DNA of 22,445 bases, from IMG/VR virus record IMGVR_UViG_3300021247_000023, positions 267-22,711 of that record. The stretch is one strand, 5' to 3'. Below the pieces are notes generated by a model. It was not told the origin of the DNA. It saw nothing but the letters and a program-made list of their open reading frames with translations, and searched no databases. This document shows positions 4,327-22,445 of the stretch, piece after piece. The stretch is from a virus. A program made the position numbers and the translations under genes. Position 1 is the first letter of the stretch. Each line of letters begins with the position of its first letter.

Positions 4327-6228
4327 TTACTCCGTTAAACCAAATGCTGCGCCATAACCTAATGCTATGGCTTTGCGTTGTAACTCTCTGTTCAGAGGCT
4401 CTACTGTCATTACAGATGCTTTCTTCATCAATGTAGAAGCAAGTTTAGGGTCTAGCATTGCATTGACCAATAACTCACGAATAGCATCATCTGTTCCGTT
4501 ATAAAGCCAGTTCATTGGTGCTGCTACTTTTTGCAAAGCAGGAGGAACATCACCAAACATCTGTTTACCAATAAGTCCACCAATTACATTAGCGGTACTC
4601 ATGTTCTTAAATGTGTCTGAACCAGCAACTTTTGTCGCTCTTGGTAAAACACCACTATCCAAGTCTTCAGCAACCATTTTCAATACTGCTAACTGAGTGT
4701 TAGACAACTTAGTGTCTTTTTCAGCAGAACGAATAGCATTTAAAAACTTAGGCTGAGAAATCAGATAGTCGTTAGCTCTTGATGGGTCAGGAGTAGTAGA
4801 AAGAACCTTGCTCTTAAACTGTTGAGCAGCCTCAAGACGCTCAATACCTTTACTAGAAGCAGCGTACTTAGCCAAATAATCCTTGTATCCAGTAGCACCA
4901 GCCTCAATTGCATCGTCCACGGCACGAATAACGGCTTCTAATTGTGGTTTAGCAGCACGATAAGCACCAACAGTCGGGCCATCTTTGGCAGACTTATCTA
5001 GCAATCCTTGTGCAGCAGCCCTTAAATCTTTACGAATCTCATAAAGTTCAGCAGGGGTTGCAGCACGAGCAATATCGTCTTTTGCATCATTTAACACAGA
5101 CATAACAGTCTGACGCTTGCCAACTGGAGAAGCAAGAATGTCATCAATAGTCTTATTGACTGTCAAAGCCACACCAGACTGAAATGTGTCAGGGTCAACA
5201 GTTGAGTTAGCAAATGCTTGCTCACGCAATGGCGTAGTGACTTCATCACGCTTTTTCAAGGCAGCAGTCAAAGCATCTTCATCTTTTGCAAGGCGATTCA
5301 AGATAGCCATTTGCGCACGATTGGCTTCTAATGCTTGAGTAGCAAATCTACCACCAGTTACATCTAGACCTTTAATCGCTGTCTCAGCGTTAATCAGTCC
5401 AATATCACGAGTCGCTTGAGCAGTTGTAGGTGTATATCCTGCAATCTTAGGAACGTATGCTTCACCAGACTTAATTGCTTGTTCAGCATCAGATGCTAAG
5501 TTACGCAATACATTTCCTGTGATTACTTCTCGTCCTGCTTGAGTAAATGGACGCATAGCCTCTTTTGCTGTACGAGCAAGAATAGGAGCAGAACCAACTG
5601 CACCACCTGCTGCAATAGAACCCATCAAAGCACCTGCTGTTTGACCCAATGGGCCTACATCGCTTTCACGAGCAGCACCTGATGCCAATGCACCAGCAGT
5701 AGCAGCAGCACCCTGAGTTCCTAAACTCTTAGTAAAGAACTCTTGAGCCTGTGATGGCAAGTTTCTAGCAATAGAAGCAGGGCCAGCGACACCAAATCCT
5801 GCACTTGTTACATCCTGAACTACACGCTCTTGTGGAGTTTGTGGAGTAGGAACACCAAGTTGTGTCATTAGGTTTTGCAAGCCTTGACTGCTAGGTTGCA
5901 TGACTTGGCGACCAGCAAGCAAGTTAATCAATCCTGTAAGCGCATCAGCACTCATAGTTGGGATAGACAAAGCACCAGTAACTGCTGCTCGTCCTGTTAA
6001 ACCTAACTGGCGACCAAAATCACTTGCGCTTCCAATTTGCATCTGCTCTGGACGAGGAGAAGTCGTAATCTCTTTGATTGCTTCTTCTCTAGTCATTTTC
6101 TTAGTAGGCTTTGGTGATTCAGCTACCTTTGTGCCACTAAGAACAGCCAAACCTGCATCAGAGACTTTTGACAAGTCGCCTGACTGCAAAGCCATCAAAT
6201 CATCATCTGACAGTTTGGTTAAGTCCAT
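4327..6228 (-). CDS. Putative DNA-ejection (internal virion) protein, 633 aa
   Basis: The protein opens with a short duplicated motif (LSDDDLMALQSGDLSKVSDAG), which from memory recurs at the start of large internal virion proteins in aquatic podoviruses. Two Ala/Gly-rich hydrophobic regions follow (about residues 78-108 and 170-225), then a long helical, Lys/Asp/Ala-rich body (230-520) and an Ala/Leu-rich end. Size, composition and place as the last of three consecutive Ala/Gln/Gly-rich proteins before the fibre parallel the P22 gp7-gp20-gp16 set, which leave the capsid with the DNA and form a channel across the cell envelope. No catalytic motif is visible. The start overlaps the stop of 6228-7481 by 1 base (TAATG). 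It is the largest of the three, so it might play the gp16-like part; that is inference. Confidence 0.75.
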   Translation of the reverse strand: MDLTKLSDDDLMALQSGDLSKVSDAGLAVLSGTKVAESPKPTKKMTREEAIKEITTSPRPEQMQIGSASDFGRQLGLTGRAAVTGALSIPTMSADALTGLINLLAGRQVMQPSSQGLQNLMTQLGVPTPQTPQERVVQDVTSAGFGVAGPASIARNLPSQAQEFFTKSLGTQGAAATAGALASGAARESDVGPLGQTAGALMGSIAAGGAVGSAPILARTAKEAMRPFTQAGREVITGNVLRNLASDAEQAIKSGEAYVPKIAGYTPTTAQATRDIGLINAETAIKGLDVTGGRFATQALEANRAQMAILNRLAKDEDALTAALKKRDEVTTPLREQAFANSTVDPDTFQSGVALTVNKTIDDILASPVGKRQTVMSVLNDAKDDIARAATPAELYEIRKDLRAAAQGLLDKSAKDGPTVGAYRAAKPQLEAVIRAVDDAIEAGATGYKDYLAKYAASSKGIERLEAAQQFKSKVLSTTPDPSRANDYLISQPKFLNAIRSAEKDTKLSNTQLAVLKMVAEDLDSGVLPRATKVAGSDTFKNMSTANVIGGLIGKQMFGDVPPALQKVAAPMNWLYNGTDDAIRELLVNAMLDPKLASTLMKKASVMTVEPLNRELQRKAIALGYGAAFGLTE

Positions 6229-7481
6229 TATGGTTTCTTTCTACGAGCAATCTCAGCTTGAATATCAGCCATAGATGGCATACCAACAGGTTTTTCAACA
6301 GGTGCATTAAGTGCTTCTACCAATGGGTTTAGCAATAATGAACCATCTCCACCTAATTGTTGAGAAATGCTTGAATATGGTGCTTTCTGAGCCTCAAGAT
6401 TACGAGCTTTTGCTTCAACAACCTTACCAGCAACAGCAAGTAATCCTGCACGCTCTTGTGGCAACAATTCCTGACCATTCAATGCACGTTGTGCGTAAGC
6501 TTGAATAGATTGAGGAATTGAACGATTACCAAGAATCGTTTTCTTGTCGCCTTCTTGAACAGCACCAGATGGGTCATAAATCTTACCGATTGCGTAAATC
6601 AATGCGCCATCAGCAGCCTTATTACCAGAATTTGCTTCAGCTACAGCAGACTTGGCAGCTTTGAATCGGTCTGCAACTTCCATTGCACCGACATCTTTAA
6701 CTACGCCACGCCAATCTTTAATAACATCAGACTGTGCTTTAGCTACTGCTGTTGGGTCTTTCAAATCTACCGCAACTTTAGGCGCACCTGCTGCTCGTTT
6801 GGCAAGTTCAAAGTCTTGGAATGAGCCTTTATAACCTTGGTCTTGTGCAAATTTGTATTCAGCAATAGCACTAGGTACTGGCTCACGTTTAGGTGCACCA
6901 GCAGCAACAATTTCTGTTTTGCCAGTTAAAGGATTTTCACGAACAAGTGTTCCACCTTCAGCCAATACATGAGTTTTTCCACCCATTGCTTGCTGCAAGT
7001 CAAGAGCATTTTTAAGATATGCCTGACCAGTACCACCCAAAGCAATTAACTCAGGAGCTACTGAAGAAATATCAAATCGAGATGGTTGTGCGGCTACAGC
7101 AGGCGTTTCACCTAAGTAGCGACCATCTTCCTCAACTGGCTTGGCTTCTACGCCAGCAACAGCAGGTTTATAACCACGCATGAACAACTGTTTAGCCATT
7201 TGTTCTTCTTGGCGTTTCTTCAGAAGTTCTTGTAATTGAGTGTTTTGCAGTTGAGTCTGCAATGCTTCGTTCATACCACCTTTATAGGCTTGCTGACCAG
7301 CTTGTAAACCTTGAGCAATAGATGCGCCTGTATTGCCACCTTGGAACAAACGTCCTGCTAGTGCATACAAAGCTTGTGCTTGTGCATCATCTCTACTACG
7401 CTGAATGTCAGCAGGAGACATACCAAGCAGACCCATAGTGTCTGCACCGCCAGTTCCAAAAATGTCTAATAGTCCTGCCAT
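6228..7481 (-). CDS. Putative DNA-ejection (internal virion) protein, 417 aa
   Basis: I chose the ATG at 7481 (MAGLLDIFGTGG), because it lies just after the stop of the upstream gene (TGATATG) and is preceded by GGTGGGA. A longer in-frame ATG at 7550 would overlap the upstream gene by 68 bases and has no ribosome binding site. The protein is Ala/Gln/Gly-rich: a hydrophobic start, a Gln-rich helical section (about residues 30-95, with NEALQTQLQNTQLQELLKK), a middle with a Thr/Gly segment (THVLAEGGTLVRENPLTGKT) and a helical C-terminal domain (about 275-370) with ADGALIYAIGKIYDPSG and KTILGNRSIPQSIQAYAQR. It ends in a basic tail (ARRKKP). I recognise no enzyme. Composition and place between two similar genes point to an internal virion or ejection protein. 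Confidence 0.72.
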   Translation of the reverse strand: MAGLLDIFGTGGADTMGLLGMSPADIQRSRDDAQAQALYALAGRLFQGGNTGASIAQGLQAGQQAYKGGMNEALQTQLQNTQLQELLKKRQEEQMAKQLFMRGYKPAVAGVEAKPVEEDGRYLGETPAVAAQPSRFDISSVAPELIALGGTGQAYLKNALDLQQAMGGKTHVLAEGGTLVRENPLTGKTEIVAAGAPKREPVPSAIAEYKFAQDQGYKGSFQDFELAKRAAGAPKVAVDLKDPTAVAKAQSDVIKDWRGVVKDVGAMEVADRFKAAKSAVAEANSGNKAADGALIYAIGKIYDPSGAVQEGDKKTILGNRSIPQSIQAYAQRALNGQELLPQERAGLLAVAGKVVEAKARNLEAQKAPYSSISQQLGGDGSLLLNPLVEALNAPVEKPVGMPSMADIQAEIARRKKP

Positions 7482-7482
7482 A

Positions 7483-8379
7483 TCAATCCCACCAGTTAGA
7501 GCCAAGAGCGGTTGCTGTATTGTCGATAGTACCCATATTAGAGCCACCATTTAGCCAATTTGCACCACTATTCCACAAGTTACTGATACCAGTAGAACCG
7601 CCCAAATTCTTATACAAACCACCACCAACAGCAGCCAAACCAAGCAAGTTCTGCAATGTAGATGTATCTTGTGTTCCGCTAGTTGTCTGGCTTGCTACAC
7701 GACCTAATGGGTTTCCATAAACCAATGACAGATAGTTTTGCAAGTTCTGCTGTGGTTGGTTTTGCAAGAAGTTAAACTTTTGAATATCAGCTTGCTGTTG
7801 TGCGCCTGTGTAGCCTTCACGAGCCTGACCAGCTTGCAACATAGCTTGAATATCTTGGTAGTCAGCACCAGCCATTTGAGGCGCAGCCATCGTAGCGGCT
7901 TGTTGACGCTGACGCTCTGCCTCATAATTCTGATAAGCCAACTGTCCAGCAGTATTAGCCAATTGCTGACCAAATGCGCCAGTTGCTCGGTCTTGCAATG
8001 AACCCATTGCACCAGAACCATAACGACCAGCCAAACTAGCTTTAGAGCCAATGTCACCTAGTGTTTGCTTAAACTGCATTTCAGCAGCCTTGGCAGCAGG
8101 AGCAAATGCACCTTGGAAGAATGGATTTCCACCCAAGAAACCACCAGAAACTGTGTTCTGCAACTGATTTTGTGCAGACTGAAGCAAAGGATTACCTAGA
8201 GAAGCACGAGCCTCTAAAGCTTGTAATCCTGTTTGAGTGGTAGTTGATGGGGCAACAAAAGTAGGGCCACCATAATACTGAGGGCCACCGCCTTGGTAAA
8301 GTTCTTGAGCTTGTTGCAATCCATACCCAAGATAGGGCTGAATTGTTGGGTCAATTTGAGATGTGGTAGTAGTCGCCAT
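7483..8379 (-). CDS. Putative internal virion / ejection protein, 298 aa
   Basis: The 298-aa product is rich in Gln, Ala and Gly. It begins MATTTTSQIDPTIQPYLGY, has a long Gln/Ala helical core (about residues 60-215, including KASLAGRYGSGAMGSLQDRA and the run AYQNYEAERQRQQAATMAAP) and ends with a Gly/Asn/Trp-rich section (GLYKNLGGSTGISNLWNSG, end SNWWD). This composition is common for the first of three injected proteins in P22-like and aquatic podoviruses, but there is no decisive motif. It has a strong ribosome binding site (AAGGAG, 7 bases before the ATG) in a 73-base leader, the largest gap in this part of the operon. That suggests separately tuned translation of the ejection-protein set. 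Confidence 0.72.
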   Translation of the reverse strand: MATTTTSQIDPTIQPYLGYGLQQAQELYQGGGPQYYGGPTFVAPSTTTQTGLQALEARASLGNPLLQSAQNQLQNTVSGGFLGGNPFFQGAFAPAAKAAEMQFKQTLGDIGSKASLAGRYGSGAMGSLQDRATGAFGQQLANTAGQLAYQNYEAERQRQQAATMAAPQMAGADYQDIQAMLQAGQAREGYTGAQQQADIQKFNFLQNQPQQNLQNYLSLVYGNPLGRVASQTTSGTQDTSTLQNLLGLAAVGGGLYKNLGGSTGISNLWNSGANWLNGGSNMGTIDNTATALGSNWWD

Positions 8380-14890: not shown

Positions 14891-15126
14891 AGAATCTTCC
14901 ACTTTTTCTCTTTGATTAAGGATTCTGAGGCTAAGCCTTCTAAGTGTCCTGTAATCAATTCAATTGTCTTTATGTGCTGATAAGCGTTTTCACGCTTATT
15001 TATTTCACTAGCACTTGTGTTAATTATTACACTAATCTGCTCTTTTTTCAAATTATCTATGACTTCTTTGAAAAAGTCATCTTCTAATAGATTTTTAGCC
15101 CATTGTGCTACTAGGTGCTTGTCCAT
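14887..15126 (-). CDS. Small helical phage protein, 79 aa
   Basis: The product starts MDKHLVAQWAKNLLEDDFFK and is helical throughout, with a central polar stretch (INTSASEINKRENAYQHIK) and a lysine-rich end (IKEKKWKIL). I know similar small proteins with the ends D-x-F-F-x-E-V and K-E-K-K-W-K-I-L next to portal and scaffold genes in podoviruses, but their role is unknown. The start overlaps the end of the 735-aa gene by 32 bases in another frame, and the region is A/T-rich. No membrane segment, signal or metal-binding motif is visible. A portal- or scaffold-associated assembly factor is possible from position only. Confidence 0.75.
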   Translation of the reverse strand: MDKHLVAQWAKNLLEDDFFKEVIDNLKKEQISVIINTSASEINKRENAYQHIKTIELITGHLEGLASESLIKEKKWKIL

Positions 15127-17302
15127 ATTGGTTTTGTATTCCAGAAATAATATCGTTGATAGACAAACTGCTTGCTGATGGATAACCTTGTTTGCTACCC
15201 AAGATTCCCATTAAGTCGTTGTAACTCAAGTTTGAGGATTGTGCAAACTTAACTGGCTCTGGTACTTTGCCATAGTTAGGGTCAAGAAATTTCTCCCATT
15301 GTGTACCAATAAGCAAATTACGAGTACCAAAATCAATTGGTGTTAGTGGCGTAAATGGCGCAACTCCAGTTTTAGGAGGAGTTTTCCAACCCTCTGGTAC
15401 TGGAACAACGTCAAAACCAGTTGGCGTACTAGTATTAGACAATACAGAACCAGCACCAAGCAAACCAGCAGCAGTTAAAGCCAACTGAGCTACTTTTAAT
15501 GGGTCTGTCTTTGTTTCTGGTGTTGTAGTAGTTGTTGTACTAGGTGTTGTAGGTGTTGTTGCAAGCGTACTAATTACACTAGGAATCGTTGTAGTTAAAT
15601 TTGGATTAGTTCCAGTTATATTAACTGTTGGAACATTAGGAGTCGTAGCCAACAAATTCACTACTTGGTCAGCAGTAAGATTCTTATTGCCAGTTACATT
15701 TACAGTTGGTGTTTGTACTGCTCCACTAACTGCATTTAGTGCCGCATTTAGTGTTTGTTGGTCAATTTGCTTGGGCGCAGAAACAGTCAATGTAGGGGCA
15801 GTTGATGCAATTGTATTAACAACATTGCCTAATGATGGTGCTGTTACATTAACAGTTCCTGCACTTGGTGTAGTTGGTGTGTTTAAGATTGCATTTGCAC
15901 CACCAGTATTACTGATGAAATCGTCAATCTGAGTATTAGATAAACCTATTCGTTTTAAATCATTGATGAAGTTTGTTTCAGTAGCATCAGCAATTTGCTC
16001 TGGTGTCATTTTGCTAAAGTCAACTGGTACATCCATTGAGGCAATATAGTCCTTCAATGTGCTGCCAGCATAAGCACCACCACCACCCAATAAAGCTGCT
16101 CTTAAAACATCTTCTTTGCTACCACCTGTCAGAGCAGTAGAACCACCCGCAATGGTTGCACCTGTAGCACCAGCTAAAGCAGGGCCTGTTAGACCAGTAG
16201 AACCTGCAATTAAATTGCTTAGATAGGGCGCACCAAGAACACTAGCTGTCAATGCTAGAACTGGACGAGATGCAGCCAACAATCCTTGGTCACCACCGCC
16301 AGCAAATGTACCTGAATCAATTACTTCACCAGTTTTAGGATTAACAATCTGCCAATTGGCTTTATTGTTTGGGTCAACTCTTGTTTCATAAACAACTTGA
16401 GGAACACCAGCAATCTGTTGTTCGATGTTATCGCCCTCAATAACAGTACCTCTAGCAGTTGGTATTACAGGCATAGTTTGTCCAGTCTGTGCTAATTGTG
16501 TAATCTGTGCTGGTGCAGTTGCAACCACATTAGATGTTTGTACTTGCTTAATAGCATCTGGTGTACTAGGAGGAACTTCATTTTTAAATTGAGACAAAGC
16601 ATCAATAACTGATTGGTTATAGATTGCCGTACCTTCTGCATTTGTATGCAAAGCATCTACCAATAATTTCTTATTTTGTAAAATCTCACCTTGAGTTCCA
16701 ACTAAAGCAACATTCTTGTTTTCTTTAGCAATCTCATTAAATAATGGGTCAACTTTAGGGTCAAAGTTGTTTGTAACTACATCATTGATGGATACGGCAT
16801 AAGGAGAACCAGTCAAAACAACATTAACACCTTGGTCACCCAAAGTTTTAACAATCTGATTGATGTTATTTTTGATAGTTCCTTTATCCACACCTTGCAG
16901 AAAATCTACACCACCAGTTTGCAAAAATACAGTAGCGTTAGGGTCAAACTGACCACCACCAGCCAAAAAAGTATTTAACTGATTGAGAGTGTCAGCAGTC
17001 GTTGCACCACCTACAGCTACATTAGTAGTCGCTTGTCCTGTGGCTTTAGCAAGTTCTTCAGGAAGTGCAGTATTAAGACTATTCCAACTAGCACCAGCCA
17101 TGATGTTTCCACCAAGCAAACCACCTGATTTGCCACCAGTTGCATTGGCTACATCTTCTCCTGAGATACCATATTGAGCCATAGCTGCTTGTGTTGCAGC
17201 AGCATCAGGATTAGTAGCTAAGAAATCACGAATAGTTGCATAAAGGTCTTCAGCAGAACCACCTGTGTTCATCCGATAGCGCATTGCATCAGAAATAGCC
17301 AT
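15095..17302 (-). CDS. 735-aa protein with divergent SGNH-hydrolase-like domain and VNVT repeats
   Basis: Residues 1-60 are helical (start MAISDAMRYRMNTGGSAEDL). Residues 66-240 match the SGNH/GDSL hydrolase order: GASWNSL (block I, Ser72), NVAVGGATTAD (block II, Gly98/99), FLQTGGVDFLQG (block III, Val132 where Asn is usual) and DALHTNAEG (block V, Asp216/His219). So the Ser-Asp-His set is present, but GDS is GAS and GxND is GGVD. A Gly/Ala hydrophobic region (341-415) follows, then repeats around TVNVT or TVNIT (483, 533, 559), a poly-Thr run (584-598) and a Pro-rich end. It lies 2 bases after the portal gene with AAAGG as ribosome site. It may be a virion protein that deacylates surface glycan or lipid, or a catalytically dead binding fold. 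Confidence 0.75.
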   Translation of the reverse strand: MAISDAMRYRMNTGGSAEDLYATIRDFLATNPDAAATQAAMAQYGISGEDVANATGGKSGGLLGGNIMAGASWNSLNTALPEELAKATGQATTNVAVGGATTADTLNQLNTFLAGGGQFDPNATVFLQTGGVDFLQGVDKGTIKNNINQIVKTLGDQGVNVVLTGSPYAVSINDVVTNNFDPKVDPLFNEIAKENKNVALVGTQGEILQNKKLLVDALHTNAEGTAIYNQSVIDALSQFKNEVPPSTPDAIKQVQTSNVVATAPAQITQLAQTGQTMPVIPTARGTVIEGDNIEQQIAGVPQVVYETRVDPNNKANWQIVNPKTGEVIDSGTFAGGGDQGLLAASRPVLALTASVLGAPYLSNLIAGSTGLTGPALAGATGATIAGGSTALTGGSKEDVLRAALLGGGGAYAGSTLKDYIASMDVPVDFSKMTPEQIADATETNFINDLKRIGLSNTQIDDFISNTGGANAILNTPTTPSAGTVNVTAPSLGNVVNTIASTAPTLTVSAPKQIDQQTLNAALNAVSGAVQTPTVNVTGNKNLTADQVVNLLATTPNVPTVNITGTNPNLTTTIPSVISTLATTPTTPSTTTTTTPETKTDPLKVAQLALTAAGLLGAGSVLSNTSTPTGFDVVPVPEGWKTPPKTGVAPFTPLTPIDFGTRNLLIGTQWEKFLDPNYGKVPEPVKFAQSSNLSYNDLMGILGSKQGYPSASSLSINDIISGIQNQYGQAPSSTMG

Positions 17303-17304
17303 GA

Positions 17305-19437
17305 TTAACCTTTAATCTCTACATTAGATGTAATACCAGCACCAATTTTCATTGCTTTCAATTGGGCTTCAGCTTCAAACTCTTGTTGCTTCATAGCAAA
17401 GTAAGCTTGTTGTTTATCACGCTCTAATTGCAACTTAGCTGCTTCTTTTTCACGCAACAATTGCATCTCAAGACCAGCCTTTTGTTGAGCCATCTGTGAG
17501 TCAATCTGCATTTGCTGTTGTTGCAGTTGCATATCAGCTTGAGCCTTGGCTTGGTTAGCCTGAATCTCAGCCTGTGTCTTAGCCATCAATGCCTGTACTT
17601 CTGGAGGCATCTGTTGCTGTTGTGGGGGAGGATTGGAGAGCATTTGGTCTTGCTCTGGTGTGATTGGTTTATAGAACTCAGCAGAATCCTTAAAGCCAGC
17701 AATCTCAACCATACGTCCTAATGTGCCACGATACTGAGCAGGTGAAACGTAAGGATTAGCAGGGCCATACTGAGCAATCAACTGCTCTTGTTTGGCCAGA
17801 ACCATAGACAGCATAGCCATCTGTTCTTGGCGATTTCCTGCACCCAAACCTACGTTAATAGCAACATCGTATTGATTAGCCCATGTGCGAGGGTCAAACT
17901 CTACGAATTCGCCACGCATACGCACTAAACGAGGCTTATCTTGATACTTGCACAAGAGATGCAAGATGCCCTTAAACAAAGACTTAACACCTGTCTCAGC
18001 AAAGATACGAGCCATCAGTTCAATCTTGCCTGCACCAGCTTGTTGCATTGAGGCAACCGCAGCAGCAGTCACATTCTGCAAGATAGATGGGTCAAGCCCT
18101 TGTGAGGCATCAGACACACCTGTACGCTTTGATTGGATTGTGTCCAAGTACTGAAGCATTGGAAAAGCTTGAGATGCTACATTCTGCACTACAAGTTGTT
18201 GCACAGCTCCTTGAGACTTAGCACGAATAACACCACCAGCAGTAGATGTAAGCAAGTCATCAAGGTTTACCTGCCCTTCAACGGCTACCACTCGTGCATT
18301 GTTTGTCAGATACAAGTTATCCAACATCTGACGAGTGATAGTAGTCTTAATCAGTTGCAAGTCAGTTGTTCTGTCTGCAAGTGAGTTACCAAAGAACTTG
18401 TGTGGAATTGGGATTGGGCAGATAGAGTGGAAAGGAACATAGTCCACTTCCTCAATCATTTCCTTACCCTTAACATCTTGCAGAATTTCATTTCCTGCAT
18501 AGAACACTTGCACCAATGATGCAATGCCTTTGCCGTCTATATCAGTTTTGACATAGCACTCAAAGACTTCAATCTCTTGCATTGATGGGTCATCGGTCTG
18601 CACTTGGTAAGGCTGCTCACCAGCAGAATAACGAGCCACACGCTCTGGCGTATATGCCAAAGCATCATCCATCTGCAAGCCTTCAACTTGCTTCTTATTG
18701 AAGCCCATAGCAATCAATGTGCTACGAGTCAACATCTGACGATGTGCCACAAATGGTGAATCAGCAATGGTACGAGCCTTCTTGCTAATCAAGAATTCCT
18801 CTGGAGGAACATTCTCAATCGTTACCTTGCCTGATTTCTTTTTCTTCTGGACTACTACGTTATGAGTAGCACCCATGACAGGCTGACCATTTTGGTCAAT
18901 GACTGGCTGTCCATTAGGGTCAAAGATTGGAAAATCTATCGTTTCTTGCTCGACAATTTCCATGCTTTCATCACTTAAAAGCATTGCTAACTCGTCATCA
19001 GACAAGTCGTAGTAACGCTCTTTTGTAATGTCTTCTTTGTCTTCCCAATAAGCTTTAACAATGCCGTTCTTTTGCAAGAGAGCATCTTTAAACCAATCGT
19101 GCAGAATAGCTACACCTTCGTTGTCACGATGGAATACCCAATTGCAATAGTCTGTGGCTTGCTTAGCAGACGCTTCGTCTTGTGGGCCTTGAGGCTCAAA
19201 GACAACAATCTGGTCTGAGCCTGTGAAAATGCGTACAAGCGATGGCAAAGCACCATCAATAGCCTCTGCTACTTCGCCTGTGACAATCTGTGATTTACCC
19301 TCGACCTCATTACCATAGGGCTGACGCAAATAGGCTTCTAAAGCCTGTTTACGCTGCTCTACTGTTTCAGATTCAATATATCCAATAGCATCATCAATTT
19401 CAGCTTGGAGTATTGACTTCAAGTCGTTCTGTTCCAT
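17305..19437 (-). CDS. Portal protein, P22 type
   Basis: The 710-aa protein is near the usual length of P22-type portals. The N-terminus has the family pattern: DDAIGYIESETVEQRKQALE, QIVTGEVAEAIDGALPSLVR, IFTGSDQIVVFEP, and ATDYCNWVFHRDNEGVAILH. Further typical stretches are EEFLISKKARTIADSPFVAH, VPFHSICPIPIPHKFFGNS, LADRTTDLQLIKTTITRQML and the segment RTGVSDASQGLDPSILQNVT. Residues 600-700 form a long Gln/Ala/Lys helix with methionines, corresponding to a barrel-like C-terminus. The dodecameric portal is the DNA entry channel and binds terminase and adaptor. The ATG has AAGGA upstream. Its start overlaps the small ORF 19400-19588 by 38 bases. Confidence 0.93.
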   Translation of the reverse strand: MEQNDLKSILQAEIDDAIGYIESETVEQRKQALEAYLRQPYGNEVEGKSQIVTGEVAEAIDGALPSLVRIFTGSDQIVVFEPQGPQDEASAKQATDYCNWVFHRDNEGVAILHDWFKDALLQKNGIVKAYWEDKEDITKERYYDLSDDELAMLLSDESMEIVEQETIDFPIFDPNGQPVIDQNGQPVMGATHNVVVQKKKKSGKVTIENVPPEEFLISKKARTIADSPFVAHRQMLTRSTLIAMGFNKKQVEGLQMDDALAYTPERVARYSAGEQPYQVQTDDPSMQEIEVFECYVKTDIDGKGIASLVQVFYAGNEILQDVKGKEMIEEVDYVPFHSICPIPIPHKFFGNSLADRTTDLQLIKTTITRQMLDNLYLTNNARVVAVEGQVNLDDLLTSTAGGVIRAKSQGAVQQLVVQNVASQAFPMLQYLDTIQSKRTGVSDASQGLDPSILQNVTAAAVASMQQAGAGKIELMARIFAETGVKSLFKGILHLLCKYQDKPRLVRMRGEFVEFDPRTWANQYDVAINVGLGAGNRQEQMAMLSMVLAKQEQLIAQYGPANPYVSPAQYRGTLGRMVEIAGFKDSAEFYKPITPEQDQMLSNPPPQQQQMPPEVQALMAKTQAEIQANQAKAQADMQLQQQQMQIDSQMAQQKAGLEMQLLREKEAAKLQLERDKQQAYFAMKQQEFEAEAQLKAMKIGAGITSNVEIKG

Positions 19438-19588
19438 GTGTATCCTTCGGAGGGCGACCGATTTTAGGTCTTTGTGAGGATTGTAATCCTTTTACCACAT
19501 TTTCCAACATTTCGATACGCAATTCAAGTTCTTTTACCTTTGGGGCGAGATTTACGCCTTGACGTTCTATATACATTACACAATCCAT
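19400..19588 (-). CDS. Small coiled-coil protein with AT-hook-like motif between terL and portal
   Basis: The ORF fills the 138-base space between terL and portal and overlaps both. Its central helix (KVKELELRIEMLENVVKGLQ, about residues 17-36) shows a leucine heptad, so it should dimerise; after it come SQRPKIGRPPKDTHG with a GRPPK AT-hook-like core, and an acidic tail. A start at 19588 gives 62 residues; the ATG at 19576 gives 58 and forms TAATG with the terL stop, the coupling used elsewhere in this operon, so it may be the true start. Neither has a strong ribosome binding site. It could bind DNA or help the terminase-portal junction; that is inferred from position and motif. Confidence 0.65.
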   Translation of the reverse strand: MDCVMYIERQGVNLAPKVKELELRIEMLENVVKGLQSSQRPKIGRPPKDTHGTERLEVNTPS

Positions 19589-20838
19589 TTCGGAGCTTGG
19601 TTAATCGGCTTACTCCACGTTGAATGACCTTCATCCAACCCCAGAGCAAGATAACGGAATGAATCAGAGCCGTGAGAAGACCAATCGTGAAGTGGTCTTT
19701 CATAGAAAATCTTACGCTTCTCATCGTAGTCTCTGCGGTAGTTTCTCAGGCAATTAAGCCCTATTTGCACTTGTGGGACATTAAACCAGCACCTTGGAAG
19801 CAGTCGCCTTACGGCTTGAATTCCATCGTCTAGTCCCATTCTGGGAGCAATCTTTATCTCAAGTCCTGCTTCCTCAAGCATCTCTAGTCGGCTTTTTCCA
19901 GAACCTAACTCTCTGACCCTAACGTCATGGGGCAAGATATGTTCTGCTTTGATGTAATCATTATCTCGAATCCACTTTACATAGTGGTCTAGTCCAACAC
20001 CATGATTCTCGTAATAGTCGATTAGGCGCACCTCAGAGCCTACCAACTGAGCCACCCAGATAGATGTAGAGTCACCCATACCCAAGTCCCAAGCAGTAAA
20101 GGTACGGCTTAGTTCCTCTCTGGGAATCTCTTGCATATGCTTCTTGTCTTCCAGTTCGTTTAGGATTTGTCCATAGTACGAGCCTTCTACAGCAGCATCA
20201 AAGCTACACTCAAACTCTTGACGATACTTATCTTCGCCCATCTCATTCTTAGCAGCCTTGAGTTCTACTTCATCTACTACACCTGTCTCAGAGGCTTTGA
20301 ACTCTAGTAAACCCCAACCTTCTTCCTTTTCTGCCCTGTCTCGCAGTTCTTTGAAGTGGTTATGGCCTTTAGGTGTGCCAATGAACAAGCACCGACCTTT
20401 TCGGTCAGCTAGCGCAGGGCGAATAATATCAGTCCAAATCTTAGGATTCTGGTCACCAATTTCGTCGAGTATCACGAAGTCAAAATACTGACCACGCAAG
20501 GCTTCAGGATTGTCTGAGCCATAAAGCTGGATGCGCCTACCCCAGAAGTCAACTCGCAACTCAGAGATATTGCTAGAACCTCCTAATGGCTCTGCATACT
20601 TCACCAGATAGTCCCATGCTACCCTCTTAGCCTGTCCATAAGTAGGAGCAATGTAGGCATAGCGAGGAGCTTCCTTCTGATTGAGGATAGCGTCTTTTAT
20701 TAAGTGGTTAATCGCAGAGACAGTCTTGCCCATGCGCCTATGAGCAACGACAACGCCAAAACGCTTACTATCCATCAATTCATGGATAGCAAGCTGTTGT
20801 TCTCTGGGTTTGTAAGGTATCTCGATTATTTCTGCCAT
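19576..20838 (-). CDS. terL: Terminase large subunit
   Basis: The 420-aa product has all expected parts. The ATPase has the motif VAHRRMGKT (31-39, Walker A with the arginine before the P-loop usual for terminases), an adenine-contact-type region (YIAPTYGQAKRVAWDYL), FDFVILDE (119-126, Walker B with catalytic Glu126) and LFIGTPKGHNHF (coupling motif, 151-162). The nuclease has AWDLGMGDS (Asp251, Asp256), ILPHD (Asp305) and HGSDSFRYLA (Asp392), a complete RNase H-like set. The enzyme pumps DNA into procapsids and cuts the concatemer. Its ATG overlaps terS by 13 bases. No host-specific insert or intein is seen. Confidence 0.96.
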   Translation of the reverse strand: MAEIIEIPYKPREQQLAIHELMDSKRFGVVVAHRRMGKTVSAINHLIKDAILNQKEAPRYAYIAPTYGQAKRVAWDYLVKYAEPLGGSSNISELRVDFWGRRIQLYGSDNPEALRGQYFDFVILDEIGDQNPKIWTDIIRPALADRKGRCLFIGTPKGHNHFKELRDRAEKEEGWGLLEFKASETGVVDEVELKAAKNEMGEDKYRQEFECSFDAAVEGSYYGQILNELEDKKHMQEIPREELSRTFTAWDLGMGDSTSIWVAQLVGSEVRLIDYYENHGVGLDHYVKWIRDNDYIKAEHILPHDVRVRELGSGKSRLEMLEEAGLEIKIAPRMGLDDGIQAVRRLLPRCWFNVPQVQIGLNCLRNYRRDYDEKRKIFYERPLHDWSSHGSDSFRYLALGLDEGHSTWSKPINQAPKWIV

Positions 20839-21092
20839 TGGACGCTTATCTGAATGTCTTTACCTTCTTCTCCAGTTACCTGTAGTGGCAAGACTTTACC
20901 TATAAGTCCCATGAAAGCCTGTGGATGGCTCTCGGCTTTGTCGATTAGATATGAAACGCCACCAGCACCATCAAGTGCTTCAATAATCATCTCTCTGATA
21001 GCGGCGTTGCCTTTGTCTAGGCTTCCTTTAGGTCTTCCTGCGCCTTCTCTAGCGCCTCCACGACCTGAAATGTTTGATTGTTTTTCAATCAT
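20826..21092 (-). CDS. terS: Terminase small subunit (putative)
   Basis: The 88-aa protein starts with a basic Gly/Arg-rich DNA-binding-like stretch (GRGGAREGAGRPKGSLDKGN, with a G-R-P-K core) found at the N-terminus of many small terminases. A helical body follows: AAIREMIIEALDGAGGVSYL and AESHPQAFMGLIGKVLPLQV, ending in a beta strand (DIQISVQWQK). It overlaps terL, the usual partner position. The small subunit finds the packaging site and activates the large subunit. It is shorter than classical P22 gp3 but within the range of aquatic podoviruses. The start has a strong ribosome binding site, AGAGGAGT, 9-10 bases before ATG, in a 42-base spacer. Confidence 0.88.
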   Translation of the reverse strand: MIEKQSNISGRGGAREGAGRPKGSLDKGNAAIREMIIEALDGAGGVSYLIDKAESHPQAFMGLIGKVLPLQVTGEEGKDIQISVQWQK

Positions 21093-21134: not shown

Positions 21135-22298
21135 TTACTCATTATATCCAAATTCGTATGGATAACCTTCTGTTGATAAAGTTTTAGCTTTTACATTTTT
21201 CTTAATAATTTCAAAATCACCATCAAGCACATTTTCACCATGCCATTTAGCGTAGTCTTTGCTTGTTGTAACCCAATCTCCATTATTAATATTTTTAACG
21301 CCTTTAGGAACAGCACGATAAACTTCAATTTCTGCTTCTGGCTTTCCTCGTGCTTTTAATGCAGCAATCCTCCATTGAGAATCAATCATTGCATTACCAA
21401 TGCCATAAAGCTGTTTACCACGAGCATCATAGACATCTGCTGGCATTATTTGAGTCAAGTCATCTAATGTAGCTCCATAAGTTTTGGCGTTAGGAGCAGT
21501 ATGAGAACCACGATACTCACTAACATCTTGACCAAGCAATCCAGTTTCAGGTGTTGGGGCAATGCGCTGTTGCATTTGAGGAGAAATCATATTGACTGAT
21601 GAATTTTCATCAATCATTCTATAAACATCATCCAATGTAGCATCAGGCATATTAGGCGGTCTTCTACCTAATTTATAAGCATTTGTAGCTGCTGCTTTAG
21701 AAGAAACTTGTCCCTGCATATCAGGAAAGTCTTGCAAAACTTTAGACTGCAACAAACTTCCAATTCCTTGACCTCGGAATGTCTCTGGAACTTGTAACTC
21801 TAATACAGACGCAGTTCCATCTGGACGAGCCAAAACATCTATTGAACCACCGCTTCTTGGGTCTGTATATTTAACTCGTTGTGCGCCAGCACCAAAAATA
21901 TCTGAAGCATCACGCTTGGCAATATCAAGCAAACCTTGTTGACCAACATCTTTAATGCTTGCACCAACTGGCAAACCTTTAGTAGCTTGCATCAATGCTC
22001 TAAAAGTAGGTGCAACAAATGGCGCAACATTCATCATTGCTTCCGCAGTCTCAGGCTTTAGCAATGGCACATTAGCACGATTTACATTGGTTAATGCGTT
22101 TAGCAGACCAGTAGGGCTTTCAGCGTATGCTGCTCGTTCTACTGTTTTAGGGATTCCTGTACTTTCCAATAAACTAGCCAAACCCTGCATTTGCTGAGTT
22201 CGTTGTTTATCTCTCATGTAACCAAGCAAGCCTTGGATAGCATCGTTAGATAACCCTGTTAATGGGTTAGCGTAAGGAGTAGCCCTTAAATCAGCCAT
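21135..22298 (-). CDS. GNAT-like plus ADP-ribosyltransferase-like (ART-PolyVal-type) protein
   Basis: The 387-aa protein starts with helices (MADLRATPYANPLTGLSNDA). About residues 140-235 look like a GNAT acetyltransferase: IDVLARPDGTASVLELQVP as strands and RGQGIGSLLQSKVL (175-188), which is the acetyl-CoA loop Q/R-x-x-G-x-G followed by a helix. Residues 263-387 match the phage polyvalent-protein ART type: GSHTAPN, YDARGKQLYGIG, VYRAVPKG (Arg328), GDWVTTSKDYAKWHGE (341-355) and a final YEFGYNE. So the R, the Ser/Thr strand and a terminal acidic residue of R-S-E ARTs are present. It is preceded by a DUF6496-like gene (TAATG coupling) and followed by terS. An injected host-modifying or virion-associated effector is likely; activity is unproven. 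Confidence 0.75.
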   Translation of the reverse strand: MADLRATPYANPLTGLSNDAIQGLLGYMRDKQRTQQMQGLASLLESTGIPKTVERAAYAESPTGLLNALTNVNRANVPLLKPETAEAMMNVAPFVAPTFRALMQATKGLPVGASIKDVGQQGLLDIAKRDASDIFGAGAQRVKYTDPRSGGSIDVLARPDGTASVLELQVPETFRGQGIGSLLQSKVLQDFPDMQGQVSSKAAATNAYKLGRRPPNMPDATLDDVYRMIDENSSVNMISPQMQQRIAPTPETGLLGQDVSEYRGSHTAPNAKTYGATLDDLTQIMPADVYDARGKQLYGIGNAMIDSQWRIAALKARGKPEAEIEVYRAVPKGVKNINNGDWVTTSKDYAKWHGENVLDGDFEIIKKNVKAKTLSTEGYPYEFGYNE

Positions 22299-22445
22299 TA
22301 TTTCATTCTGCCCATTTTCTTGGCAGCTTCGCTAATAGCAATCGCAACGGCTTGCTTTGGATTCTTCACAACCTTGCCACCTTTGCCAGAGTGCAGTTCC
22401 CCCTTGCCAAATTCGTGCATGACAGTAGCCATCTTAGCTTTGCCA
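22298..22445 (-). CDS. DUF6496-like small basic protein, N-terminus cut by window edge
   Basis: Forty-nine codons are visible from the right edge to the TAA at 22298: KMATVMHEFGKGELHSGKGG, followed by KVVKNPKQAVAIAISEAAKK and MGRMK. The pattern V-M-H-E-F-x-x-G-x-L-H-S-G-x-G-x-x-V-x-N-P-K-Q-A-x-A-I-A-x-S-E-A is that of the small DUF6496 family, frequent in phages and bacteria and of unknown function. The protein is very basic and Gly/Lys-rich, so nucleic acid contact is plausible. Its stop shares one A with the ATG of the next gene (TAATG). The start lies beyond the window; earlier homologs are short, so little is missing. Confidence 0.8.
   Translation of the reverse strand, partial: GKAKMATVMHEFGKGELHSGKGGKVVKNPKQAVAIAISEAAKKMGRMK

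What the first reader, a model, noticed from the sequence alone, without database searches (positions are those of the whole stretch)
21135..22298. Single phage protein joining a GNAT-like motif and an ADP-ribosyltransferase-like domain
Seen: RGQGIG with a following helix (residues 175-188), and a C-terminus with VYRAVP, GDWVTTSKDYA, WHGE and a terminal YEFGY. Known: GNAT proteins bind acetyl-CoA through such a loop; ART-PolyVal domains with the YRAVP and GDWVT signature occur in injected phage polyproteins. Inference: one effector may both acylate and ADP-ribosylate host targets, delivered by the virion or made late. It is placed directly before the terminase genes, which is not a usual site for host takeover enzymes.
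Basis: partly seen in the sequence, partly recalled or inferred. Interest (0 to 1): 0.7.

Follow-up and report, generated by a model that had tools for sequence, protein, structure and literature searches.

The report
Phage slot protein with swappable cargo
A phage gene beside the DNA-packaging genes encodes a constant front part joined to two different predicted enzymes, and in relatives the same front part carries other enzymes instead, so it looks like an interchangeable slot for proteins that may be injected along with the phage DNA.

Summary
In detail: the ORF is on the MINUS strand (22298..21135, 387 aa) and every quoted motif is present. AlphaFold gives a confident minimal GNAT (about 122-243) and a confident compact domain (262-387) whose solved-structure matches at Z>=2 are all ADP-ribosyltransferase-superfamily, at low Z (4.6 at most). 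R328 and E382 are invariant (43 of 43 rows); position 344 is Thr/Ser in 42. It does not match PF18760 ART-PolyVal, and a site beside terminase genes is documented for phage ARTs, so that part of the reading fails. Behind it, 81 complete proteins carry 15 clusters of C-terminal sequence (Pfam names include ART-PolyVal, LPD23, PBECR5, metallopeptidases). Near relatives keep module and terminase/portal DNA at 75-89% identity while the cargo differs. 56 of 81 module proteins end in a short GLL tail; this one does not. Best reading: a polymorphic, polyvalent-type effector slot, probably virion-delivered. Delivery, activities and targets are inferred, not shown.

The parts
21135..22298 (-). slot gene, 387 aa: constant N-module + GNAT + ART-like domain
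21990..22298 (-). constant N-terminal module (residues 1-103), predicted helical with low confidence; shared by proteins with unrelated cargo
   Evidence: alignment A1, 195 stretches of viral contigs, 77 distinct proteins, some cut by contig ends; pLDDT blocks 31-63
21570..21935 (-). minimal GNAT domain (residues 122-243), acyl-CoA loop R175-G-Q-G-I-G180
21528..21542 (-). GLLGQ (residues 253-257) at the joint between GNAT and ART; the same ETGLLG joint precedes a PBECR5-type domain in L105
21138..21515 (-). ART-like domain (residues 262-387)
21315..21317 (-). R328, candidate strand-1 arginine of the ART site, 43 of 43 rows
21267..21269 (-). T344, candidate strand-2 Ser/Thr, 38 T + 4 S + 1 A of 43 rows
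21153..21155 (-). E382, candidate catalytic glutamate, 43 of 43 rows
20826..21092 (-). small-terminase-like gene next downstream (weak PHROG match, E 0.022); its type varies independently of the cargo in relatives
19576..20838 (-). terminase large subunit
17305..19437 (-). SU10-type portal protein
   Evidence: PF23899 E 1.9e-218
22298..22445 (-). 3' part of the small gene upstream of the slot; its stop overlaps the slot start codon; homologs in 60 of the 144 sequences held
5758..5997 (-). segment of the 633-aa protein, two genes after a DNA-ejection-like gene; weak profile similarity to the core of the N-module

Best explanation
The gene is one occupant of a polymorphic effector slot in a group of uncultivated tailed phages. 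The first ~100 residues are a constant module that I infer acts as an address, placing the protein in the virion or with the ejection proteins. What follows is interchangeable cargo, replaced between near relatives by recombination. Here the cargo is a minimal GNAT plus a compact ART-like domain with an R-[S/T]-E pattern. The protein is inferred to be made late with the packaging genes, carried in the virion, ejected with the DNA, and used to acylate and ADP-ribosylate host macromolecules early in infection. Shown here: the fused domains (predicted folds), the constant module, different cargo between near relatives, purifying selection, and the packaging-gene position. Inferred: packaging, ejection, catalysis and targets.
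For: GNAT: all 50 Foldseek PDB rows shown are GNAT-fold enzymes by title or recall (best 3d8p E 9.5e-4); VIA best is Elp3 at Z 8.8 over 83 residues, with YjdJ 5i0c at Z 7.5, 74 residues, 2.1 A. ART: domain model pLDDT 90.5, pTM 0.84; 35 of 196 chains reach Z>=2 and all 31 entries listed are ART-superfamily by title or recall. R328 and E382 invariant in 43 rows. Slot: module relatives in 195 stretches of viral contigs; in 77 distinct proteins Pfam finds ART-PolyVal in 11, LPD23 in 10, PBECR5 in 4, DUF6782 in 3, MATCAP in 3, Peptidase_M78 in 1. DNA: L034 matches window 22444-22035 (87%) and resumes at the TerL start, 20838 (83%), cargo unaligned; L024 and L105 resume at the slot stop codon. Position: 58 of 81 slot proteins lie near TerL or just after a putative internal virion protein. 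One copy per record in the 10 of 12 records that have it. In Gordonia phage Skog a protein with this ART-like domain lies four genes before the tail sheath. Precedent for head-packaged ARTs: PMC5512222, PMC9503650.
Against: I saw no virion proteomics or activity data for this protein family. The N-module model has low confidence and no solved structure was matched to it. ART Z-scores are low (4.6 at most) and Foldseek finds nothing at E<0.001 for that domain. Some relatives have Lys for the middle Gly of the CoA loop. PF18760 matches that I saw in detail score below that model's curated cut-off. 23 of 81 slot proteins could not be placed in the three contexts. The 'internal virion protein' label of one context is mine: its PHROG (5880) has no known function. 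The same ART-like domain is also a stand-alone gene in Mycobacterium phage Maxxinista, among unannotated genes near RecA-like and DnaQ-like genes. Venkman, the closest isolate by TerL, has no slot protein annotated before TerL.
Confidence: 0.6

Rival explanations
1. The slot protein is not packaged: it is made late with terminase and portal and modifies host or phage proteins inside the producing cell, the N-module being a docking domain for a phage protein such as terminase.
For: Position directly before TerS/TerL; no direct evidence for packaging; T4 ModA and ModB are ARTs that are not injected (PMC5512222 ART section).
Against: Three different placements share only nearness to packaging or putative virion genes (35 with TerL downstream, 15 after a putative internal virion protein, 8 just after TerL; in L097 the portal follows). 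Cargo families overlap with polyvalent effectors.
Confidence: 0.2
2. The two folds are present, but the activity is not protein modification: the ART-like domain is an NADase or modifies nucleic acid or a small molecule, and the GNAT is inactive or acts on a small molecule. (Compatible with virion delivery.)
For: The residue two before E382 is Pro or Ser in 42 of 43 rows and Tyr in one, never Glu or Gln; the best structural neighbours are KptA/Tpt1, with Arr also listed; position 178 of the CoA loop varies in relatives.
Against: Conservation of R328, T/S344 and E382 and purifying selection argue for catalysis of some kind.
Confidence: 0.3
3. A polymorphic toxin with a cognate immunity gene, as in MuF toxins of temperate phages.
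For: Constant N-terminus with variable C-terminal domains. In L034 and L075, which share a cargo cluster, an extra 118-aa ORF overlaps the slot stop.
Against: In the window the next gene is small-terminase-like, and in relatives its type does not follow the cargo: L008 and L024 have nearly the same cargo by eye but different types. No MuF family among the Pfam hits of 77 slot proteins. The module was not confirmed in the 84,980-genome collection by the pattern scan, so there is no sign of prophages.
Confidence: 0.05
4. The N-module is only a recombination anchor and has no address function.
For: DNA similarity to relatives with other cargo commonly stops near the module's end (about residues 88-98).
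Against: The module is conserved at the protein level while synonymous sites are near or at saturation in most pairs tested; its core scores higher against a segment of the 633-aa protein family than all 200 column shuffles did, a post hoc comparison.
Confidence: 0.1

Closest known systems
Polyvalent proteins of phages and conjugative elements (Iyer et al. 2017, PMC5512222)
   Same: Unrelated effector domains in one polypeptide, GNAT next to ART, encoded near late genes in portal-terminase phages; two or three domains is also the usual number there. Slot relatives match named polyvalent domains (PF18760, LPD23, PBECR5).
   Different: One family-wide constant N-terminal module with a single replaceable cargo position; the paper says polyvalent proteins did not conform to the organisation of secreted toxins, whose variability is mostly C-terminal. 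The ART-like domain here does not match PF18760 and has an R-[S/T]-E rather than an H-Y-D pattern.
MuF polymorphic toxins of temperate phages (Jamet et al. 2017, PMC5576092)
   Same: Constant N-terminal domain, variable C-terminal effectors, gene in the packaging module.
   Different: No MuF family match, no sign of lysogeny in the genome scan, no immunity-like gene in the window.
T4 Alt and other head-packaged phage ARTs (PMC5512222, PMC9503650)
   Same: Phage ART with an R-S-E-like pattern, thought to act on the host after ejection.
   Different: Smaller domain joined to a GNAT; no direct comparison with Alt was run here.
PHROG 2579 ('ParB C-terminal domain') proteins of mycobacteriophages and Gordonia phage Skog
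   Same: Profile positions 335-461 of 472 match residues 256-386 (E 1e-32); the Skog protein also aligns over residues 160-386.
   Different: Other genomic contexts. Whether the ParB name refers to another part of the profile was not tested.

Membership tests
GNAT superfamily | GNAT fold | tested here: met
   All 50 Foldseek rows shown are GNAT-fold enzymes by title or recall; the 50 VIA entries shown have Z 6.9-8.8 over about 122-243. Pfam GNAT models score below cut-off (16.8 bits against 30).
GNAT superfamily | [QR]-x-x-G-x-[GA] acyl-CoA loop (motif recalled) | tested here: met
   R175-G-Q-G-I-G180; R175 and G180 22 of 22; the middle Gly is Lys in some relatives.
ART superfamily | ART fold | tested here: met
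   All 31 entries listed at Z>=2 are ART-superfamily by title or recall, but Z is 4.6 at most and Foldseek gives no E<0.001: low-Z support only.
ART superfamily, R-S-E type | Arg on strand 1, Ser/Thr on strand 2, Glu near the last strand | tested here: met
   R328 43/43 on strand 323-331, T/S344 42/43 on strand 342-344, E382 43/43 just before strand 383-385. That these residues form one site was not measured on the model.
ART superfamily | NAD-dependent transfer activity | not testable with these tools
   no assay
ART-PolyVal PF18760 | profile match | tested here: not met
   No PF18760 hit for P0001 at E<=1; 11 of 77 slot relatives match at E<=0.001.
Polyvalent proteins | two or more unrelated effector domains in one chain | tested here: met
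   GNAT + ART-like, by predicted structure.
Polyvalent proteins | late/virion gene neighbourhood in a portal-terminase phage | tested here: met
Polyvalent proteins | packaged and injected | not testable with these tools
   needs virion proteomics
MuF polymorphic toxins | MuF domain | tested here: not met
   no MuF family among Pfam hits of P0001 at E<=1 or of 77 slot proteins at E<=0.001
MuF polymorphic toxins | dedicated small immunity gene downstream | tested here: not met
   In the window a small-terminase-like gene follows 42 bases after the slot stop. Relatives L034 and L075 do have an extra 118-aa ORF.
T4 Alt family | sequence or profile relationship to Alt | not tested
   no Alt profile comparison was run

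The most novel reading that the evidence does not exclude
These phages mark proteins destined for ejection with portable short addresses: a constant ~100-aa N-module derived from a segment of an ejection protein, and a terminal GLL motif. The GLL motif is at the C-terminus of most N-module effectors (56 of 81), at the N-terminus of some effectors that lack the module (15 of 57), and at an end of neighbouring putative virion proteins. Any enzyme that lands between such addresses becomes injectable, giving an evolvable injection slot that exchanges effectors as cassettes.
Probability: 0.3. Interest if true: 0.78.

Novelty: new variant of a known kind. Interest (0 to 1): 0.55.

Why it matters
If the slot is virion-delivered, it is a compact, frequently re-armed injection system. 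The constant module gives a handle for finding new phage effectors by position alone (195 stretches of viral contigs already), and it is a candidate minimal signal for loading proteins into a phage particle, which can be tested directly.

Tried and rejected
PF18760 membership: rejected. Obligate GNAT-ART pair: rejected (7 of 32, 7 of 49). Immunity gene: the downstream ORF is small-terminase-like and does not track the cargo, with L034/L075 as a possible exception. Host or prophage search with the N-module: 148 pattern stretches in genome contigs, none confirmed. The module alone gave no match in 50,697 phage records at E<=1, although the full protein aligned from residue 1 to two Manatee Spring records of the same length.

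N-module against the N-terminus of the 440-aa protein (MAGLLDIFG...): hhalign probability 1.2, no support. N-module against the 633-aa protein family: first attempt probability 0.9, E 0.059; with a broader segment picked by eye, probability 11.2, E 0.0027. Controls for the latter: real score 21.3; 200 column shuffles mean 10.0, best 18.1; reversed 11.5; other alignments 9.4-12.0; of seven windows of the wider 633-aa alignment, three that contain the same segment scored only 16.5-16.6, one that partly overlaps it 12.1, and the other three 9.0-10.4. I count it as suggestive only.

GLL near internal domain breakpoints: 46 of 339 against 34 expected within 12 aa, 80 against 54 within 20 aa; not used as an argument. 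GLL tail control: the first control gave 35 of 270 other ORFs, higher than I expected; by my reading about 22 are glycine-rich ORFs and 9 are the putative virion protein next to the slot. I then counted TerL 0/66, portal 0/16, small upstream gene 0/40, TerS 0/18. A second count gave 36 of 474 other ORFs with the C-terminal motif.

Rows dropped: incomplete ORFs and copies with the same C-terminus before the tail counts. Before structure prediction: L092, L094 and L097 N-fragments and eight others that misaligned, and L020; the ART-only alignment left out rows with a long insert such as L100 and L020. The fold lists for the ART domain name no Alt or PF18760 structure, which says nothing either way. 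Literature searches in open-licence PMC listed no paper whose title or abstract start describes this module or slot; most subscription papers are not held.

Full report
WHAT IS THERE. The finding's coordinates hold a single ORF on the minus strand (22298..21135, 387 aa); the plus strand is interrupted by many stops. Its start codon overlaps the stop of the small gene before it (TAATG). It is followed after 42 bases by an 88-aa gene that is small-terminase-like by position and a weak PHROG match (E 0.022; best match PHROG 11043, unknown function), then terminase large subunit, an SU10-type portal and a 735-aa protein. By comparison with the annotated record MW202462, scaffold and capsid genes should follow; I did not test those ORFs. 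At the other end of the window lies a DNA-ejection-like gene (7483-8379, PHROG 4287 E 1.4e-10) followed by a 440-aa and a 633-aa ORF. The record is a 22,711-base viral contig that ends at the window's end. By TerL the closest listed isolate is Methylophilales phage Venkman, at 62%, whose gene before TerL is annotated as a recombination endonuclease.

THE TWO PREDICTED ENZYMES. AlphaFold with a 63-row alignment gives mean pLDDT 74, two confident domains and a weak N-terminal region. For the whole model all 50 Foldseek PDB rows shown are GNAT-fold enzymes by title or recall, best E 9.5e-4, and VIA-align gives Z up to 8.8 over about residues 122-243, including the minimal GNAT YjdJ (Z 7.5, 74 residues, 2.1 A). 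The CoA loop R175-x-x-G-x-G180 is present; R175, G176 and G180 are invariant in 22 rows, while the middle Gly varies. The C-terminal domain modelled alone has pLDDT 90.5 and pTM 0.84. Foldseek gives nothing at E<0.001 for it (top row the ART Vis, E 0.35). VIA-align of 196 candidate chains gives Z>=2 for 35, and the 31 entries listed are all ART-superfamily: KptA/Tpt1 (Z 4.6 at most), Arr, cholera-type A chains, Vis, PARPs, ExoS, Tse6, RES, TreTu and CNFy (that TreTu, RES, Tse6 and the CNFy domain are ART-like is recalled). R328, E382, H266, Y262, D341, W342, Y349 and H353 are invariant in 43 rows and position 344 is T/S in 42. So the site looks R-[S/T]-E, unlike the H-Y-D site that PMC5512222 gives for polyvalent-protein ARTs, and Pfam PF18760 does not match. 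The residue two before the Glu is Pro, Ser or (once) Tyr, so I cannot predict the target. The domain is widespread: 171 phage records match the protein, 56 of the 60 listed through residues 254-386 only, and 119 stretches of viral contigs encode it, of which 80 were kept.

THE CONSTANT MODULE AND THE SLOT. The first scan of viral contigs gave matches to separate parts of the protein: residues 1-103 match at up to 86% identity in proteins whose remainder is unrelated. With an alignment of this region, 195 stretches encode it, best 80 kept. It has no significant Pfam or PHROG match, no match in 50,697 phage records on its own, and none confirmed in the 84,980-genome collection. Of 77 distinct proteins with the module, Pfam at E<=0.001 recognises ART-PolyVal in 11, LPD23 in 10, PBECR5 in 4, DUF6782 in 3, MATCAP in 3, and one each of M78, DUF7178 and HlyD_2. 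The ART-PolyVal matches that I saw in detail score below that model's curated cut-off; the LPD23 and PBECR5 examples score above theirs. The C-terminal parts of 81 complete proteins fall in 15 clusters, one of them a broken ORF, L089. One copy occurs per record in the 10 of 12 records that have it. Of 81, 35 have TerL within 2.5 kb downstream, 15 lie just after a putative internal virion protein, 8 just after TerL, and 23 could not be placed. 'Putative internal virion protein' is my label for homologs of PHROG 5880, unknown function, and neighbours of that kind without a PHROG.

CARGO REPLACEMENT. DNA comparison of the window with relatives (coordinates converted from the reverse complement): L034 is 87% identical up to window position 22035 and 83% identical from 20838 (the TerL start), with unaligned cargo and a different small gene before TerL. 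L024 is 89% identical over the module and resumes at 87% at the slot's stop codon; its cargo looks ART-PolyVal-like by motif (by eye). L105 shares module and GNAT (82%), then carries a domain that clusters with the PBECR5 protein L065 in place of the ART, and resumes at the stop codon (84%). L008, L012, L018, L025, L026, L036, L037 and L038 show a matching module (82-89%) and matching TerL and/or portal DNA (75-85%) with unaligned cargo. The small-terminase type changes independently of the cargo: L008 and L024 have nearly the same cargo by eye but different types. That argues against a cognate immunity gene, with L034 and L075 (an extra 118-aa ORF) as a possible exception.

SHORT TERMINAL MOTIF. 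56 of 81 module proteins have [GSN]LL in the last eight residues, spread over 10 of 15 clusters, encoded by 19 different Leu-Leu codon pairs, so the conservation is at the protein level. TerL 0/66, portal 0/16, the small upstream gene 0/40 and TerS 0/18 lack it, but 35 of 270 other ORFs have it, mostly glycine-rich ORFs and the putative virion protein next to the slot. Among proteins with this ART domain, 11 of 16 with the module and 2 of 33 without have the tail (Fisher p 9e-6, not corrected for relatedness). The putative virion protein next to the slot in one phage group has it in 9 of 13 (strict motif). GNAT/ART effectors that lack the module sometimes start with M(x)GLL instead: 15 of 57 against 26 of 474 other ORFs, and 19 of those 26 belong by eye to one ~165-aa family before the slot. 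The window's own protein has no terminal motif (it ends YEFGYNE); it has GLLGQ between GNAT and ART. In L110 and L117 a comparable GNAT ends the protein with GLLE or NLLD, so the ART may have been added behind a former end. That is inference, and so is any function of the motif.

A LINK TO EJECTION PROTEINS. A segment of the 633-aa protein (window 5758-5997 and relatives), two genes after the DNA-ejection-like gene, aligns to the module's core (36 columns, hhalign E 0.0027, probability 11%). The score, 21.3, exceeded all 200 column shuffles (best 18.1), but an earlier, narrower comparison failed, wider windows containing the same segment scored only 16.5-16.6, and the segment was picked by eye. 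It only suggests an address borrowed from an ejection protein.

HOW IT PROBABLY WORKS. The gene is inferred to be expressed late with the packaging genes; the module (and in relatives the GLL tail) to place the product in the particle; the product to enter the cell with the DNA; and GNAT and ART to modify host macromolecules early. Precedent is T4 Alt and the polyvalent proteins (PMC5512222: abstract, the sections on ARTs, GNATs, domain combinations, ParB, genomic contexts and provenance, and passages; PMC9503650: passages). None of the functional steps is shown here.

COMPARISON AND NOVELTY. GNAT+ART fusions in phage polyvalent proteins, ARTs beside terminase genes, and constant-N/variable-C phage effectors (MuF toxins, PMC5576092: abstract and first part of Results) are all known. 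What I did not find described in the searches listed under Tried and rejected is the module, its single-gene slot with cargo replacement visible between near relatives and no evident immunity gene, an ART-like family outside PF18760 carried in it, and the terminal GLL motif. I class it as a new variant of a known kind.

Noticed in passing
15095-17302 (-): 735-aa protein between portal and the next gene cluster with a GDSL-lipase-like stretch at residues 72-227 (Pfam E 1.4e-5, above cut-off); unusual position.
   Followed up: no
6231-7481 (-): Putative virion protein with a nearly invariant start MAGLLDIFGTGG...MGLLGM in most of 19 aligned relatives; has the GLL motif but no detectable homology with the slot module.
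   Followed up: partly
4327-6228 (-) and L234, L266, L272: The 633-aa gene position holds either a ~620-650-aa or a 520-aa form in relatives; the 520-aa form ends in NLLGIQ.
   Followed up: partly
L021:3787-6266: Two effector genes in tandem: an N-module+GNAT+ART protein, then an ART-PolyVal-like protein (PF18760 E 2.3e-6, below cut-off) that starts MPGLLG and ends GGLLD.
   Followed up: partly
L092-L099: A sub-group with the slot just after TerL; several members end in a different constant tail, DPF(A/G)NTI...TTR, over unrelated cargo.
   Followed up: partly
L100:2970-3476: ~165-aa family about 0.2-1 kb before the slot that starts M(S/T)GLLEP and has a Cys-containing part; no Pfam or PHROG match. 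MW202462 has a gene annotated as high potential iron-sulphur protein upstream of its slot; homology not tested.
   Followed up: partly
L089:5001-6595: Slot gene with an apparently broken frame: N-module ORF of 142 aa overlapped by a second ORF ending KGLLD; may be a sequencing error.
   Followed up: no
L034 and L075, between slot and TerL: A 118-aa membrane-like ORF overlaps the slot stop in both relatives, which form one cargo cluster; a possible cargo-linked partner.
   Followed up: no
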